From assembly GCF_009856865.1 (NCBI RefSeq), contig NZ_WVUD01000029.1:1-47628 (forward strand): a stretch of DNA of 47,628 nt. Direction: 5' to 3'. The position numbers and the translations under genes were made by a program. Every line of letters begins with the position of its first letter. The first letter of the stretch is position 1. This DNA is from Solidesulfovibrio aerotolerans. Lineage in GTDB: Bacteria; Desulfobacterota; Desulfovibrionia; Desulfovibrionales; Desulfovibrionaceae. Below are positions 11,244 to 38,467 of the stretch, one piece after another. The notes under the pieces are model-generated. The model was not told where the DNA came from. It made no database searches and was given only the letters and a program-made list of their open reading frames with translations.

Positions 11244-11298
11244 TGGGGCGCTGCCCCACGCCCCGCCGGGGGCCTTAGGCCCCCGGACCCCCAAAAGG
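11244..11298 (+). repeat. Extragenic GC-rich repeat, copy B
   Basis: Just after the EF-G-like stop. GGGGCGCTGCCCC is followed by CGCCGGGGGCC-TTA-GGCCCCCGG and ACCCCC, a shortened relative of copy A at 5281. Confidence 0.55.
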
Positions 11299-11361
11299 TG
11301 GGGCCGCGATCCGGTCGGCGTCAAGGCGAAACGCTCTGACGCCGACCGGATCGCGGCCCCA
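11299..11361. other. 25-bp perfect inverted repeat (large hairpin)
   Basis: The left arm 11299-11323 and right arm 11337-11361 are perfectly complementary over 25 bases, separated by 13 bases that contain a further GCG-AAA-CGC mini-stem. No T run follows on either strand, so it is not a standard intrinsic terminator. It lies between the EF-G-like gene and the response regulator, 56 bases before the latter's start. Confidence 0.85.
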
Positions 11362-11416
11362 CAGTCAGGTCTTACAGAATCGTTAAAACAGCAACGAGCA
11401 GCCTCCATACAACATC

Positions 11417-12826
11417 ATGGCCCACATTCTCCTTATCGACGACGACGCCATCCTGCGCGAGACCTTTGGCGGGCTTATGCGCCGGCTGGGGCACGTCCTG
11501 ACCTGGGCCGGCTCCATGGCGGAGGGCCGGCTGGCGCTGGCCCGCGACCGGGTGGATGTGGTGCTGCTCGATCTGCGCCTGCCTGACGGCTACGGCCTGG
11601 ACCTGATGGATGAAATAAAGGCCGCCCCGGGGGTGCCCGAAGTCATCATCATCACCGGCCGGGAAGACCCCGAGGGCGCTGCCCTGGCGATCAAGTCCGG
11701 GGCCTGGGACTACATCCAAAAGCCTCTCACTCCCAACCGTGTCACCCTGCCGCTCACCCGCGCCCTGGAATACCGCGCCCAAAAGGCCTCCCGGCGGCCG
11801 CGCGCGGTGCTCAAGCGCGAAGCCATCGTCGGCAGCGGACCGGCCATGGAAGCCTGCCTGGATCAGGTGGCCCAGGCCGCCGATTCCAACGCCTCGGTGC
11901 TTATTACCGGCGAGACCGGCACGGGCAAGGAGCTGTTTGCCCAGGCCATCCACGCCAACTCCAGCCGCGCCCACAGCAATTTTGTGGTGGTGGACTGCGC
12001 CGCCCTGCCCGAGACGCTGGTTGAGAGCGTGCTTTTCGGCCATGTCAAAGGCGCCTTCACCGGAGCGGATCGCGACCGCGACGGGCTGTTCAAACTGGCT
12101 GACGGCGGCACACTCTTTCTCGATGAGATCGGCGAACTCTCGCCCGGCATCCAAAAGACCTTTTTGCGCGTGCTCCAGGACGGCCGGTTTCGCCCTGTCG
12201 GGTCCAAGCACGAACTTTCCAGCGATTTCCGGCTGGTGGCCGCAACCAACCGCGACCTGTCGGTCATGGCCGGCATCGGTTCCTTTCGCGAAGATCTGCT
12301 CTACCGGCTGCGCACCATCGTCCTCACCCTGCCGCCCCTGCGCGCCCGGCAGGAAGACATCAAATCCCTGACCATCCACCACATGAACCGGCTGTGCGAG
12401 CGCTACCGGCTGCCGACCAAGGGCTTTGCCGAGGAGTTTTTCCAGGCGCTGTGCGTCTATAGCTGGCCGGGCAATGTGCGCGAACTGTTCGGGGCCATGG
12501 AGCGGGTGCTGCTGCAATACCGCAACGAGCCGGTGCTGTATCCCAAGCATTTGCCCGACGAGATCCGGCTGCAAGTGTTGCGGGCCAACGGCGTTGGCGA
12601 AGCGGCCGAACCAGGGTACGGCGACACTGTCGAATCGGGCGATGCCGGCATAGCGCCGTGGAAAGCTTTTCGCCGGCTGGCCATGGAAGAGGTGGAACGC
12701 GGCTACCTGGGCGACCTGTTGCAAATCAGTCGCGGCAACGTGGGGCGGGCCTCGAAAATAAGCGGCCTGTCGCCGTCGCGGCTCTATGATTTGTTTCGCA
12801 AATACGGGCTGGTGACGCGGCCGTAA
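11417..12826 (+). CDS. NtrC-type sigma-54 response regulator
   Basis: A 469-residue protein in three parts. The receiver (residues 1-120) has DDD at 8-10, phospho-acceptor Asp52 in LLDLRLPDG, and KPL near 105. The AAA+ domain has Walker A GETGTGKE, GAFTGA and Walker B LFLDEIGE. A C-terminal Fis-like HTH reads GNVGRASKISGLSPSRLYDLFRKYG. The GAFTGA loop shows that it should activate sigma-54 polymerase. No clear Shine-Dalgarno precedes the ATG at 11417. No histidine kinase is adjacent, so it is an orphan. The nearest candidate target is the sigma-54-like promoter at 13227, about 400 bases downstream. Confidence 0.9.
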   Translation: MAHILLIDDDAILRETFGGLMRRLGHVLTWAGSMAEGRLALARDRVDVVLLDLRLPDGYGLDLMDEIKAAPGVPEVIIITGREDPEGAALAIKSGAWDYIQKPLTPNRVTLPLTRALEYRAQKASRRPRAVLKREAIVGSGPAMEACLDQVAQAADSNASVLITGETGTGKELFAQAIHANSSRAHSNFVVVDCAALPETLVESVLFGHVKGAFTGADRDRDGLFKLADGGTLFLDEIGELSPGIQKTFLRVLQDGRFRPVGSKHELSSDFRLVAATNRDLSVMAGIGSFREDLLYRLRTIVLTLPPLRARQEDIKSLTIHHMNRLCERYRLPTKGFAEEFFQALCVYSWPGNVRELFGAMERVLLQYRNEPVLYPKHLPDEIRLQVLRANGVGEAAEPGYGDTVESGDAGIAPWKAFRRLAMEEVERGYLGDLLQISRGNVGRASKISGLSPSRLYDLFRKYGLVTRP

Positions 12827-13226
12827 GGGGCGCGCCCCCCCAGGGTCCGGCGCTGGCAGCAGGCTGCAGCCCGCAGGCACGGCAACAGCATGGTCTTCGG
12901 CCAGCAAGTTGCGAGCGCGGCAGCCTCGTGGTCCTCGGCGACGGGATCGGGCTTTTGGGCAACAGTTCGTCTCGCCGCGCCTGCCGTGCGCGGTGCCAGG
13001 ACCGCACGACGGGCAGCATTTCCCTCTTGGCAATCCCTGTGCAATCCCGTAGAAGCAGCGCCCGCCCCGGGAATCGGCCGGCCCCCGCACGAATTTTCCG
13101 TACTTTTTTCCACTTTTCCCGTAATCCAGGATACACTTTTGCGGCACATTCGATTTGAAAACTTGTCAACACAGGCAATCGTTCGGAATTCCTTGCTAAA
13201 AAGCTACCTTTGCGGATCTGAAACAG
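12827..13226. other. Non-coding stretch
   Basis: 400 bases between the response regulator and the sigma-54-like promoter. The first 250 bases are GC-rich with no convincing reading frame on either strand; the last 150 are clearly more AT-rich, as expected upstream of a regulated promoter. I do not see a clean inverted repeat that would mark an activator site. Confidence 0.5.
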
Positions 13227-13242
13227 TGGCACGCATTTTGAA
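13227..13242 (+). promoter_or_regulatory. Sigma-54-like promoter
   Basis: TGGCACG-CATT-TTGAA. The -24 element is a perfect match and the GG to -12 spacing is ten bases as required; the single departure is A for C in the -12 GC. Predicted start of transcription is near 13253. It lies after a sigma-54 activator gene and just before the terminator-bounded RNA at 13253-13335. Confidence 0.6.
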
Positions 13243-13252
13243 TAAGCATGAG

Positions 13253-13335
13253 CAAGGCAGAATGATACCTCCCTATCATTCTGGCCTCTCCTTCATCTCC
13301 TGCGCGGGGGCTCTCACTGAGCCCCCCATTTTTTT
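13253..13335 (+). ncRNA. Candidate sigma-54-driven small RNA or ktrB leader attenuator
   Basis: Between the sigma-54-like promoter and a strong terminator lies an ~83-base segment with no usable reading frame. It holds a ten-base hairpin (CAGAATGATA / TATCATTCTG, 13258-13283) whose loop is CCTCCC. A pyrimidine-rich single strand with CTCTCC and ATCTCC follows, then the terminator hairpin GGGGGCTC-TCACT-GAGCCCCC with seven T. The exposed CUCC motifs are anti-Shine-Dalgarno in character. It could act in trans as a small RNA, or be an attenuated leader of the potassium genes 50 bases downstream. Confidence 0.5.
13306..13335 (+). terminator. Rho-independent terminator upstream of ktrB
   Basis: Eight-base stem GGGGGCTC / GAGCCCCC with loop TCACT, then CATTTTTTT. 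It lies 51 bases before the ktrB start with no coding gene before it, so it must end a short untranslated transcript or attenuate ktrB. Confidence 0.8.
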
Positions 13336-13366
13336 GGCTGCCTCCCCCCTGGAGAATCCCCGCGTC

Positions 13367-13396
13367 ATGCGTTATTTAAGCCGTCATGTGGCATAA
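13367..13396 (+). CDS. Nine-codon leader ORF overlapping the ktrB start
   Basis: ATG 13367 opens MRYLSRHVA and stops at TAA 13394-13396, eight bases past the ktrB ATG at 13386. GGAG lies 12 bases before this ATG, whereas ktrB itself has no Shine-Dalgarno and an in-frame TAA seven bases before its ATG. Ribosomes ending the leader could re-initiate on ktrB. Too short to judge by composition; the call rests on the overlap. Confidence 0.35.
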   Translation: MRYLSRHVA

Positions 13397-14756
13397 AAAG
13401 CTCTTTGCGCCCCTGGTCCTGCCCATGCACTTTTTCGCGGCAGCCATCCTGCTCGGGGCAGGCCTTTTGTGCCAGCCCATAAGCTGCACCGGCCCCACTG
13501 TGTCCTTTCTCGACGCCCTGTTTACCGCCACCTCGGCCGCCTGCGTCACCGGCCTGACCGTCACCGACACCGGCACGACCTTCACCCGCTTCGGCCACAC
13601 CGTCATCCTGGCCCTGATCCAGCTCGGGGGCCTTGGCATCATGACCTTTTCCACCCTGGTCTTTTATCTCTGGCGGCGTCGGGTCTCCCTGGCCGACCAT
13701 ATCGCCGTGGGCCAGAGCCTGCTCCATGACGCCTCGTTTCATCTGGGCCGCTTTCTCACCCGCGTGGCCGTGGTGACGGCCGTCATCGAAGGGGTGGGGG
13801 CGCTGGGCCTGCATGTGTTTGATCCGGTGGGCTTTACCCCCTTTTCCGCCGTGTTCCATTCCGTCTCAGCCTTTTGCAATGCCGGGTTCGGCCTGTTTCC
13901 CGACAATCTCATGCGCTATACCGGCCATCCCGGGATCAATCTGGTCATCATGTGGCTCATTGTCAGCGGCGGCCTGGGCTTTGCCGTGCTCATCGAGGGC
14001 TACCGCGTGGCCCGCGGCCGGCTGTGGGGTCCCGAGCGGACGGGCGGACGGCACCTGGCCTTGTCCTGGTATGCCCGCACGGTCTTTGCCGTTTCGGCCT
14101 TTCTCGTGTTCGTGGGCGCGGCCATGATTTTTTGCGGCGAGTTTCTCGGTGGCCGCTACCCGGAATTGCCGGTCCTCGACCGGATCGTGGCCGCCCTGTT
14201 CCAGTCCGTCTCCTGCCGCACCGCCGGCTTTAACACCTTGGACATCGGGCGCATGGCCGACGCCTCCCTGGTCATCATGATCCTGCTCATGTTTATTGGC
14301 GGCTCGCCCGGCTCCTGCGCCGGCGGCATAAAGACCACGACGTTTCGGGTGCTGGCCGCTTTTGGCAGGGCCAAGATGTTTGGCCGCAAGCAGGCCGTGG
14401 TGGGCCGGTTCGCCGTGGACGACGACACCGTGGACCGGGCTGTCACCCTGACCATTTTCGCCGCCGGGCTGGTGCTTGGCTCGGTGCTGCTGCTGTGCTT
14501 CACCGAGGGGGCGGTGGCCCCGCATGTGGAAGCCGGGGGACGCTTTATGGAAATTTTATTTGAGGTGGTGTCGGCCTTTGGCACGGTGGGGCTGTCCACG
14601 GGCATCACCCCGGGCCTGTCCCCGGCCGGCAAGGTGGTCATCACCCTGCTCATGTTTGTCGGGCGGTTGGGACCGATTCTCTTTCTCTCGGCCTTGCAGG
14701 GGTTCCAGGAGCCGCTGCGCTACCGCTGGCCGGAACAAAACATGATGATCGGCTAG
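13386..14756 (+). CDS. ktrB: KtrB/TrkH-type potassium transporter subunit
   Basis: A 456-residue membrane protein with the four M-P-M repeats of the TrkH/KtrB family. Its four filter loops are visible: TSAACVTGL (Gly56), SAFCNAGFG, SCRTAGFN and SAFGTVGLS. It would conduct K+ (with Na+) across the inner membrane. The size and the KtrA-like partner gene just downstream favour KtrB over the larger TrkH. The ATG at 13386 has no ribosome site of its own but overlaps a nine-codon leader ORF. A terminator 51 bases upstream suggests that expression depends on read-through or a separate promoter I cannot place. Confidence 0.88.
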   Translation: MWHKKLFAPLVLPMHFFAAAILLGAGLLCQPISCTGPTVSFLDALFTATSAACVTGLTVTDTGTTFTRFGHTVILALIQLGGLGIMTFSTLVFYLWRRRVSLADHIAVGQSLLHDASFHLGRFLTRVAVVTAVIEGVGALGLHVFDPVGFTPFSAVFHSVSAFCNAGFGLFPDNLMRYTGHPGINLVIMWLIVSGGLGFAVLIEGYRVARGRLWGPERTGGRHLALSWYARTVFAVSAFLVFVGAAMIFCGEFLGGRYPELPVLDRIVAALFQSVSCRTAGFNTLDIGRMADASLVIMILLMFIGGSPGSCAGGIKTTTFRVLAAFGRAKMFGRKQAVVGRFAVDDDTVDRAVTLTIFAAGLVLGSVLLLCFTEGAVAPHVEAGGRFMEILFEVVSAFGTVGLSTGITPGLSPAGKVVITLLMFVGRLGPILFLSALQGFQEPLRYRWPEQNMMIG

Positions 14757-36313: not shown

Positions 36314-37777
36314 CTACTCGCCGCCGGCGCGCTTGAGCTTTCGAAAAATCGTCGTGCGATCCAGCCCAAGCCGCTTGGCCGCCTCGCCAACCGAACCGAA
36401 ATGCGCGATGGCCCGCTCCAGATACTCCCGCTCAAAGCTCGAAACCACATCCTTATACGGCCGCTCCCAGTCCGCCTCCGCAAGCGCCAGTTCCGGCCCG
36501 GCCGCCCCCGGCTGGGGCGGCGCCGCCGCAACCGCCGCCGCGCCAACAGCCAGCACACACTCCGTCACCCGCATGACCGTGGGCAGATCGTCGGATTCGA
36601 TGCTCCCGTTATCGCACGTGATCACCAACCCCTCGATGAGATTTTCCAGCTCGCGCACGTTGCCCGGCCAGTTGTAGTGGGCCAGGATGCGCTCGGATTC
36701 CAGGGTCAACGTGGTGCGCTTGCGGTAGCGCGCGCCAAAGCGCTGCAAAAACATCCGGGCCAGGGGCAAAATGTCGTCGGGCCGGTCGCGCAGGGGCGGA
36801 ATCTCCAGCACCGCCACCCGCAGCCGGAAAAACAGATCGCTGCGAAACGATCCCACCTTGGCCTCGGCTTCCAGATTGCGGTTGGTGGCGGCAATGACCC
36901 GCACATTGGTCTTTCGCGACCGGCTCGACCCGACCGGGGTCAACTCCCGGTCCTGGAGCACCCGCAGGAGCTTGGATTGCAGCAGCAGCGGCATATCGCC
37001 GATCTCGTCAAGAAAAATGGTGCCCCCGTCGGCCATCTCAAAAAATCCCACCCGCCCCTTGGGATGCGCCCCGGTAAAGGCTCCGGGGGCGTAGCCGAAC
37101 AGTTCGGATTCAATGAGATTTTCCGGGATGGACGCGCAGTCCACCTTGACGAAGGGCTTCTCGCGCCTGGGGCTGGCCTCGTGGATCATGCGGGCGAACA
37201 ATTCCTTGCCAACGCCCGTCTCGCCCAACACCAAGGCCACGGCGTCGGTGGCGGCAATGCGGCGCAAGAGGTCCATAAGCCGCTTCATGGCCGAATTCTC
37301 GGCAATGAAGCTGGTGATGCCCCCACCCTCGCGGATGAAAAAATCCATTTGATGCTGATAGGTTTCGATCAGCTCCTGCTGGCGGGAGATGCGCTCGCGC
37401 ATGCGGGCCATAAGCGTAATGTCGCGGGCGTAGAGCACGACCAGGCTCACCGTGCCGTCCGGGTCGCGGATGGGCTTGCCGTCGATGGTCATGGAGCGGT
37501 TGTTGCGGGTGACCTGGATGGAGGACGCCGGCTGGCCCGTGGCCACGATCTCGGGAGTGATGGGGGCGATATTGAAAAGGCCGGCTTTTTGAAGCTCTTC
37601 GACGTTCTTGCCGATCAGCTCGGCCTTGCTGATGCCGGTTAACTGCTCATAGGCGGCATTGGCCTTTAAGGCATAGCCGTCGCGGTCGGCGATAAACACG
37701 CCGTCTTCGATGCTGTCGAGGATGGCATCGAGGTGGGCGGCCACGGGATCGAGGGGTATTTGTACCTTTTTTCTCAA
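36314..37777 (-). CDS. PAS-containing sigma-54 activator
   Basis: A 487-residue enhancer-binding protein without a receiver. A PAS domain (15-120: LDAILDSIEDGVFIADRDG) is linked by a coiled coil. The AAA+ domain has GETGVGKE, GAFTGA and IFLDEIGD. The C-terminal Fis-type HTH reads SVGEAAKRLGLDRTTIFRKLKRAG. Signal sensing is therefore direct through the PAS domain, not by phosphorylation. The start is TTG 37777, with AAGGGGG six bases upstream. It is divergent from the IscU-like gene, whose sigma-54 promoter (38022) and TTGCAAC-type sites lie between them, so that gene is the obvious target. Confidence 0.9.
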   Translation of the reverse strand: MRKKVQIPLDPVAAHLDAILDSIEDGVFIADRDGYALKANAAYEQLTGISKAELIGKNVEELQKAGLFNIAPITPEIVATGQPASSIQVTRNNRSMTIDGKPIRDPDGTVSLVVLYARDITLMARMRERISRQQELIETYQHQMDFFIREGGGITSFIAENSAMKRLMDLLRRIAATDAVALVLGETGVGKELFARMIHEASPRREKPFVKVDCASIPENLIESELFGYAPGAFTGAHPKGRVGFFEMADGGTIFLDEIGDMPLLLQSKLLRVLQDRELTPVGSSRSRKTNVRVIAATNRNLEAEAKVGSFRSDLFFRLRVAVLEIPPLRDRPDDILPLARMFLQRFGARYRKRTTLTLESERILAHYNWPGNVRELENLIEGLVITCDNGSIESDDLPTVMRVTECVLAVGAAAVAAAPPQPGAAGPELALAEADWERPYKDVVSSFEREYLERAIAHFGSVGEAAKRLGLDRTTIFRKLKRAGGE

Positions 37778-38021: not shown

Positions 38022-38037
38022 TGGCATGTTGATTGCT
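38022..38037 (+). promoter_or_regulatory. Sigma-54 promoter of the IscU-like gene
   Basis: TGGCATG-TTGA-TTGCT. Both the -24 GG and the -12 GC are present at the required ten-base spacing, with the preceding T and following T of the consensus. Predicted transcription start near 38048, giving a leader of about 57 bases. Confidence 0.8.
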
Positions 38038-38104: not shown

Positions 38105-38467
38105 ATGACCGCTACCGCCACCACCACCAAGACCCGTTTGACTGTGAAGCCCCTTGAAAACTACACCATCGAAGGCACCAGCGAATGTTCCGCCTGCGGC
38201 CGCTCGGTCAAGATGCAGCTGCTCATTGAAAACGACATCATCGTCGATGCCGGCGGAACGGTCGAAAGCTGCGGCTACAGCCGCGAATGCATGGCCGCGC
38301 TCATTGCCACCGTCAAGGGCATGAACATCATGGACGCCCAGGCCGTGTCCAGCGAAGATTTCCAGCCGCTCATGACCCGCGTCATCGAGAAGCTTGGTTG
38401 CGATAACTGGTGTGTGGCGGCCTTGCGCATCGCTCTGCGCAACTATCGCCTCCGGGCAGCGGCCTAG
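38105..38467 (+). CDS. IscU/NifU-N-like small protein
   Basis: A 120-residue protein that aligns by eye with the IscU scaffold. ACGRSVKMQLLIENDIIVDA matches IscU's ACGDVMKLQI segment; ESCGYSRECMAALIATVKGM matches the second cysteine segment; NWCVAALRIALRNYR matches the last. The three cluster cysteines correspond to Cys31, Cys56 and Cys103. The cluster-release Asp of IscU is Arg33 here and the His before the third cysteine is Trp102, so ordinary scaffold activity is doubtful. Extra cysteines are Cys28, Cys62 and Cys99. ATG 38105 has AAAGGAG before it. Driven by the sigma-54 promoter at 38022. Confidence 0.65.
   Translation: MTATATTTKTRLTVKPLENYTIEGTSECSACGRSVKMQLLIENDIIVDAGGTVESCGYSRECMAALIATVKGMNIMDAQAVSSEDFQPLMTRVIEKLGCDNWCVAALRIALRNYRLRAAA

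What the first reader, a model, noticed from the sequence alone, without database searches (positions are those of the whole stretch)
13227..13335. Candidate sigma-54-dependent small RNA with anti-Shine-Dalgarno loops
A near-consensus sigma-54 promoter (-24 perfect, one -12 mismatch), then a 10-bp hairpin with loop CCTCCC, a CUCC-rich single strand and a strong terminator, all within about 110 bases and without coding potential. It lies downstream of an orphan sigma-54 activator gene. It could be a translation-blocking small RNA or a ktrB attenuator.
Basis: partly seen in the sequence, partly recalled or inferred. Interest (0 to 1): 0.75.

Follow-up and report, generated by a model that had tools for sequence, protein, structure and literature searches.

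The report
Sigma-54 small RNA with Shine-Dalgarno-blocking motifs
Next to a gene for a sigma-54 activator, this sulfate-reducing bacterium probably makes an RNA of about 83 bases that exposes two stretches able to stick to ribosome start sites on messenger RNAs; close copies occur in related genomes, so it is probably a real regulator, although what it switches off is still unknown.

Summary
The element at 13227-13335 is conserved in 14 of 14 genomes of its genus (Solidesulfovibrio, judged from named relatives) and in four genomes of two other genera. Kept are the sigma-54 promoter (18 of 18), a hairpin with compensatory changes and loop CCUCCC (17 of 18), a single strand UCUCCUUCANCUCC (18 of 18) and a terminator. 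The predicted RNA is 79-85 nt in 17 of 18. The closest homolog of the adjacent activator gene scores far higher in the 18 sRNA genomes than in any of the other 229 family genomes searched. The RNA is kept in genomes where ktrB does not follow, so it is not simply a ktrB leader. No Hfq was found in the 8 genomes searched. Best reading: a response-regulator/sigma-54-controlled trans-acting sRNA that blocks translation starts through two anti-Shine-Dalgarno seeds. No target is identified; hndA looked promising but its pairing is not above background. The kind is known (D. vulgaris ncRNAs beside response regulators, GlmY, Qrr; anti-SD sRNAs such as NfeR1). No Rfam family is matched. Homology to the D. 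vulgaris ncRNAs could not be tested.

The parts
11417..12826 (+). Response-regulator sigma-54 activator (receiver + AAA+ sigma-54 domain with GAFTGA + Fis-type HTH, the last just under Pfam's cut-off); proposed activator of the sRNA
   Evidence: Pfam; closest homolog at 641 bits or more in 18 of 18 sRNA genomes and at 520 bits or less in the other 229 family genomes; within about 8 kb of the sRNA in 14 of 18
13093..13103 (+). Upstream activator-like site 1 (degenerate TTTTNCCGTAA, two mismatches)
   Evidence: Placed by eye in the window; a second site 19-21 bp upstream of site 2 is found by a looser pattern in 11 of 14 genus genomes, not including the window
13114..13124 (+). Upstream activator-like site 2, TTTTCCCGTAA, 113 bp upstream of the promoter (start to start)
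   Evidence: Exact TTTTNCCGTAA in 12 of 14 genus genomes, one-base variants in the other 2; of the 8 exact sites in this genome only this one has a sigma-54-like promoter reading away from it within 300 bases
13227..13241 (+). Sigma-54 promoter TGGCACG-N4-TTGA
   Evidence: TGG[CT]-N7-TTG at the same place in 18 of 18 genomes
13253..13335 (+). Predicted small RNA, about 83 nt
   Evidence: Start inferred from the promoter, end from the terminator; 79-85 nt in 17 of 18 genomes
13255..13287 (+). 5' hairpin, loop CCUCCC (13268-13273), first anti-SD motif
   Evidence: Three pairs with both sides changed and pairing kept; loop unpaired probability 1.0 in the 17 genomes that have it
13287..13300 (+). 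Single-stranded UCUCCUUCAUCUCC, second anti-SD motif
   Evidence: 13 of 14 positions identical in 18 of 18 genomes; mean unpaired probability 0.67-0.99
13306..13335 (+). Intrinsic terminator (8-bp stem, 5-nt loop, T7 tail)

Best explanation
A free-standing, about 83-nt trans-acting small RNA. Shown by sequence: a conserved sigma-54-type promoter, upstream TTTTNCCGTAA sites, a conserved folded RNA with two exposed anti-SD stretches, and an intrinsic terminator. Inferred: the phosphorylated response regulator encoded at 11417-12826 binds those sites and, with sigma-54 RNA polymerase, switches the RNA on; the CCUCCC loop and the UCUCCUUCANCUCC strand then pair with purine-rich ribosome-binding sites of several mRNAs and block translation start without Hfq. 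The signal, the kinase and the mRNAs are unknown.
For: The RNA is found in 14 of 14 genus genomes by DNA search and in 4 genomes of two other genera by a covariance model. The promoter is kept in 18 of 18, and the distance from promoter to terminator is nearly constant. Compensatory stem changes with an invariant loop, and an invariant single strand, point to selection on an RNA. The closest regulator homolog and the sRNA co-occur (641 bits or more in 18 of 18 with the RNA, 520 or less in 229 without, taking the two draws of 247 family genomes as the same), and the gene lies directly upstream in 7 of 18 and within about 8 kb in 7 more. Of the 8 exact activator-like sites in this genome, only the sRNA one has a sigma-54-like promoter reading away from it within 300 bases. 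Both anti-SD stretches are predicted mostly unpaired. Hfq was found in 0 of 8 sRNA genomes, with 5 of 14 control genomes positive. NfeR1, an Hfq-independent sRNA with anti-SD seeds, acts by this mechanism (PMC10746234, passages read).
Against: No transcript data were available. No target is supported: an extended complementary site is no commoner than the reversed control (116 against 119 hits in 14 genomes, the 116 including the RNA's own antisense); hndA starts of four genomes rank 105, 105, 156 and 85 of 174 background starts by duplex energy; no gene shares the AAGGAGAGG site between genera among the 100 starts compared. The -12 element departs from consensus in 17 of 18 genomes. In G004 the regulator homolog is about 161 kb away, in G011 and G012 on another contig, and in G002 split over contigs. 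TTTTNCCGTAA is not commoner genome-wide than its reversed control (126 against 148 in 14 genomes), and in the g53 genomes only one degenerate site per locus was found. G067 lacks the CCUCCC loop and a clean T tail. On two of five covariation measures the structure is not clearly above shuffles.
Confidence: 0.62

Rival explanations
1. A 5' leader or attenuator of ktrB: transcription from the sigma-54 promoter reads through the terminator under some condition and gives ktrAB mRNA.
For: In the window the terminator ends 50 bases before the ktrB ATG, and the sigma-70 scan of 12800-13500 found no promoter; ktrB is downstream in 11 of 18 genomes, and in G067 a TrkA-like gene follows.
Against: In G007, G009 and G010 the RNA is kept although an obgE-like gene follows (in G007 after a KtrA-like remnant), and ktrB was not found in the fetched regions of G005, G006, G008 or G067 either. 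Whether ktrB lies elsewhere in those genomes was not searched. A terminator stem with a T-rich tail is present in 17 of 18.
Confidence: 0.1
2. A broad translation throttle or anti-SD decoy: the RNA imitates the 16S rRNA tail and weakly covers many Shine-Dalgarno sites at once instead of a few specific mRNAs.
For: The loop holds ACCUCC, the anti-SD core (recalled), and the strand holds UCUCCUU; no specific conserved target emerges.
Against: Conservation extends beyond the anti-SD letters (e.g. the GCGC that follows the strand), though that may belong to the terminator; the expression level is unknown.
Confidence: 0.12
3. A protein-binding or sponge RNA: the C-rich stretches capture a protein or another RNA rather than mRNAs.
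For: No mRNA target found.
Against: A CsrA sponge of the usual type is unlikely: 16 of 18 predicted RNAs hold no GGA; G013 has one in the terminator, and G067 has one past its terminator stem, where the end is uncertain (the GGA preference of CsrA is recalled).
Confidence: 0.1
4. A non-functional or differently transcribed conserved intergenic region.
For: No RNA data.
Against: Compensatory changes with an invariant loop, uniform RNA length, conserved promoter and upstream sites.
Confidence: 0.06

Closest known systems
D. vulgaris Hildenborough response regulators DVU0679 and DVU0653, each with an ncRNA downstream (Dv_sRNA2 for DVU0679)
   Same: Response-regulator sigma-54 activator with its target ncRNA directly downstream, same bacterial order, RNA function unknown for Dv_sRNA2 (PMC3333781 passages; PMC4641369 passages and section 6). 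DVU0653 has GAFTGA like the window's regulator.
   Different: R1 matched only three genera among 247 family genomes.
GlmY with QseF/GlrR (enterobacteria)
   Same: sRNA gene in the same locus as the response-regulator gene that activates it through upstream sites; sigma-54 promoter (PMC8745638 passages; PMC6075780 search listing)
   Different: GlmY is a decoy for RapZ (PMC7073468 search listing); GlmY is not among the Rfam matches here
Qrr sRNAs with LuxO (vibrios)
   Same: Response-regulator activator plus sigma-54 drives a small RNA (search listing)
   Different: Qrr RNAs are Hfq-dependent (recalled); Hfq was not found here
alpha-r14 / NfeR1 anti-SD sRNA family (alpha-proteobacteria)
   Same: Anti-SD motif in unpaired regions, Hfq-independent, blocks a translation start region (PMC10746234 passages)
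   Different: Three hairpins each with CCUCCUCCC, activated by LsrB and repressed by NtrC; here one loop CCUCCC plus a single strand, sigma-54 promoter
mmgR / suhB (Rfam RF00519)
   Same: Small RNA; weak score over the same region and strand
   Different: 14.5 bits against a cut-off of 41, E 1.4 and 0.52: not a member

Membership tests
Sigma-54-dependent sRNA adjacent to its response-regulator activator | Sigma-54 promoter at the RNA's start | tested here: met
   18 of 18 genomes, by sequence only
Sigma-54-dependent sRNA adjacent to its response-regulator activator | Activator gene linked to the RNA | tested here: met
   Directly upstream in 7 of 18, within about 8 kb in 14 of 18, closest homolog present in 18 of 18
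Sigma-54-dependent sRNA adjacent to its response-regulator activator | Activation of the RNA by that regulator | not testable with these tools
   needs expression or binding data
Homolog of D. vulgaris DVU0653 or DVU0679 ncRNA | Sequence or synteny homology | not tested
Anti-SD trans-acting sRNA | Exposed, conserved C/U-rich stretches complementary to SD sites | tested here: met
Anti-SD trans-acting sRNA | Pairs with translation start regions of mRNAs | tested here: inconclusive
   No enriched or above-background target
Anti-SD trans-acting sRNA (Hfq-independent subset) | Works without Hfq | tested here: inconclusive
   PF17209 in 0 of 8 sRNA genomes, found in 5 of 14 control genomes; absence of the gene only, not a test of action
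Rfam mmgR/suhB RF00519 | Score at or above the gathering cut-off | tested here: not met
   14.5 of 41 bits
Any Rfam 15 family | Score at or above the gathering cut-off | tested here: not met
   0 matches in the window; weak ones below cut-off, best ylbH leader on the other strand, 18.6 of 50 bits, E 0.025
ktrB leader/attenuator | Always precedes ktrB | tested here: not met
   ktrB follows in 11 of 18 genomes; an obgE-like gene follows in G007, G009, G010

The most novel reading that the evidence does not exclude
A stress-triggered, Hfq-independent anti-SD decoy: one response regulator, through sigma-54, makes an RNA that imitates the 16S rRNA tail with two seeds and dampens translation initiation widely in sulfate reducers, possibly with stronger effects on energy genes such as hndA.
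Probability: 0.1. Interest if true: 0.75.

Novelty: new member of a known kind. Interest (0 to 1): 0.45.

Why it matters
It gives a conserved and testable regulator-sRNA pair in sulfate-reducing bacteria in which no Hfq gene was found. At least one of the D. vulgaris ncRNAs beside response regulators is described as of unknown function; this one offers defined seeds, a defined promoter and a candidate activator.

Tried and rejected
hndA (first subunit gene of the hnd NADP-reducing hydrogenase, name recalled from its sequence) as target: its start region carries AAGGAGAGGTG in 12 of 14 genus genomes and a variant in 2, and it lies about 9-17 kb from the sRNA in six genomes (G001, G003, G004, G007, G010, G011; positions), but on another contig in the window's genome. 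Predicted duplex energies for four genomes rank 105, 105, 156 and 85 of 174 background starts (the background is mechanical ATGs with an SD-like run in 20 held sequences of the genus, so rough). 0 of 4 genomes of the other two genera match a 60-residue HndA piece. It stays a weak lead. A recurrent AAGGAGAGGTCNAGNCCCATG hit opened only a 5-codon frame and was dropped. The recurrent GGAGATGAAGGACAAG hit, read in one locus (L326), lies inside a coding frame that resembles signal peptidase I (identification recalled). Only part of the pattern hits were examined: 30 loci (whose list was also cut) plus stretches chosen from its rows, 30 of the 36 hits, four loci read by script, and 44 of the 126 hits (8 of 8 in the window's genome).

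Regulator homologs in other genera: downstream sequence was read in 12 paralog loci (L092-L103) and scanned by pattern in 17 of 20 stretches (the script found no activator frame in L114, L117 and L122). None showed this RNA; in six of six g41 stretches a sigma-54-like promoter with TTGC precedes a frame beginning MNDALLK (lactate-dehydrogenase-like by recall). No tree of the activators was built; 'closest homolog' rests on the score gap. In one search the minus-strand loci were not turned; one search repeats it correctly. In one search my promoter pattern had the wrong spacing; one search repeats it. The ORF picker often took shadow frames; gene order is therefore taken from tblastn and read frames. 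R1 was searched over 247 family and 297 order genomes, partly the same ones; R1 was built from the 14 genus sequences, so those match by construction; the order search added one borderline match at E 0.004 (G057), which looked unrelated when read. The pattern scan of genome contigs gave 77 stretches, of which 7 match R1 strongly, all Desulfovibrionaceae by title; it did not list several genomes that the genome search shows to carry the RNA, so its absences mean little. A plasmid search with the activator gave only homologs below 60% identity. Weak Rfam matches below cut-off (ylbH, SprD, suhB and others) were set aside. Paper searches for an earlier report, listings only: Desulfovibrio+sigma54+small RNA (8 papers), Desulfovibrio vulgaris+sRNA (25 of 37 listed), Desulfovibrio magneticus+non-coding RNA (4 papers), Solidesulfovibrio+sRNA (no paper); no title or abstract start showed this RNA.

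Full report
What is there. The window belongs to a genome (G000, 4.6 Mb, 161 contigs) whose genus is taken as Solidesulfovibrio because six contigs of genus members have the lengths of named contigs, four titled Solidesulfovibrio and two Desulfovibrio sp.. Between a response-regulator sigma-54 activator gene (11417-12826; receiver and AAA+ domains, Fis-type domain just under cut-off) and a TrkH/KtrB-like gene (13386-14756) lies a sigma-54 promoter TGGCACG-N4-TTGA (13227-13241), then 83 bases that fold into a hairpin with loop CCUCCC, an open strand UCUCCUUCAUCUCC and a strong terminator. The promoter motif alone could be chance (0.24 expected in the window); the fold is better than all 200 shuffles.

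Conservation. A DNA search of 59 genomes found the element strongly in 14 of 14 genus genomes and in none of the other 45 beyond short weak matches (best E 0.005). Alignment of the 14 shows the RNA nearly unchanged between freely varying flanks. In the hairpin three pairs change on both sides while pairing is kept, and 100% of cells are paired in that helix. Over both helices the covariation score is 0.222 against 0.134 in shuffles (0 of 500 reach it), cells with double changes 11 against 3.9 (0 of 500); but on 'pairs with double changes' 62 of 500 shuffles reach the observed 3 and on 'further pair types' all 500 do (RNAalifold agrees). A covariance model built from the 14 matched 18 of 247 family genomes: the 14 by construction, three of genus g53 and one of g43. 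In G067 (g43) the 5' hairpin has lost the CCUCCC loop but the strand GACCUCUCCUUCAACUCCUGCGC is kept, so the single strand is the deepest-conserved part.

Control region. The pattern TGG[CT]-N7-TTG is present at the same place in 18 of 18, ending TTGG in 16, TTGA in the window and TTGC in G067. Upstream, TTTTNCCGTAA is exact in 12 of 14 genus genomes and a one-base variant in 2; a second, looser copy 19-21 bp further up is found by pattern in 11 of 14 (in the window only by eye); G067 has three copies and each g53 genome one degenerate copy. Genome-wide the pattern is no commoner than its reversed control (126 against 148). I looked at 44 of the 126 hits, including 8 of 8 in the window's genome: there only the sRNA site has a sigma-54-like promoter reading away from it within 300 bases; among the 44, three others (in G001 and G009) had such a match. 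The closest homolog of the activator scores 641 bits or more in the 18 sRNA genomes (in G002 a 356-residue piece) and 520 bits or less in the other 229 family genomes, taking the two draws of 247 as the same. It is directly upstream of the sRNA in 7 of 18, within about 8 kb in 7 more, about 161 kb away in G004, on another contig in G011 and G012, and in G002 split, with a C-terminal match at the end of the sRNA contig some 5 kb away. That the activator binds the upstream sites is inference.

Not simply a ktrB leader. ktrB follows the RNA in 11 of 18 genomes by tblastn. In G007, G009 and G010 the frame that follows resembles obgE (name recalled; the same frame follows ktrA in the window), in G007 after a KtrA-like remnant, while the RNA, promoter and upstream sites remain. 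Whether those genomes keep ktrB elsewhere was not searched.

How it would work. The loop and the strand are predicted open (unpaired probability 1.0 for the loop in 17 of 17 and 0.67-0.99 for the strand in 18 of 18) and are complementary to Shine-Dalgarno-type purine runs. No Hfq gene was found in 8 of 8 sRNA genomes searched. The most likely action is translation block by pairing, as reported for NfeR1 in S. meliloti (PMC10746234, passages). I could not name a target. The pattern AAGGAGAGG-N1-9-ATG occurs 8 to 18 times per genus genome, the RNA's own antisense included in some. hndA is the only gene seen to recur across most of the genus (12 of 14, a variant in 2) among the hits examined, but its pairing energy is ordinary (ranks 105, 105, 156 and 85 of 174). 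In the three g53 genomes a gene resembling mvhD (recalled) carries the site, and no gene shared the site between genera among 100 starts compared. The long complementary site is not enriched (116 against 119).

What is known. In D. vulgaris Hildenborough, response regulators DVU0679 and DVU0653 have ncRNAs directly downstream as targets, and four ncRNAs belong to the sigma-54 regulome (PMC3333781 passages; PMC4641369 passages and section 6). GlmY and Qrr are other sigma-54 sRNAs driven by response-regulator activators. So the kind is known. The sequence reaches no Rfam cut-off (weak matches), and the listings of my paper searches show no description of it. Whether it is a homolog of a D. vulgaris ncRNA remains open.

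Noticed in passing
window 38022-38036: A second near-consensus sigma-54 site (TGGCATG-N4-TTGC) ahead of a small frame starting near 38105 (MTATATTTKTRL, cysteine-containing), with a sigma-54 activator-like frame (PAS-like by recall) on the opposite strand at 36314-37777.
   Followed up: partly
window 11298-11362: A 31-nt inverted repeat, 94% complementary with 3 bases between the arms, between the elongation-factor-G-like gene and the activator gene.
   Followed up: no
L039, L040, L045, L046: In several relatives the sRNA follows genes that look like hydE and hydF, with hnd-type hydrogenase genes a few kb further upstream (identifications recalled, read in L046).
   Followed up: partly
L041, L042, L044: In G005, G006 and G008 a hybrid histidine kinase (read in L041) lies just upstream of the sRNA; its family was seen only in these three regions.
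   Followed up: no
window 13368-13397: A nine-codon frame (MRYLSRHVA) overlaps the ktrB start, and a TGGAGA-like and GCTAC-like stretch between terminator and ktrB is partly kept in relatives.
   Followed up: no
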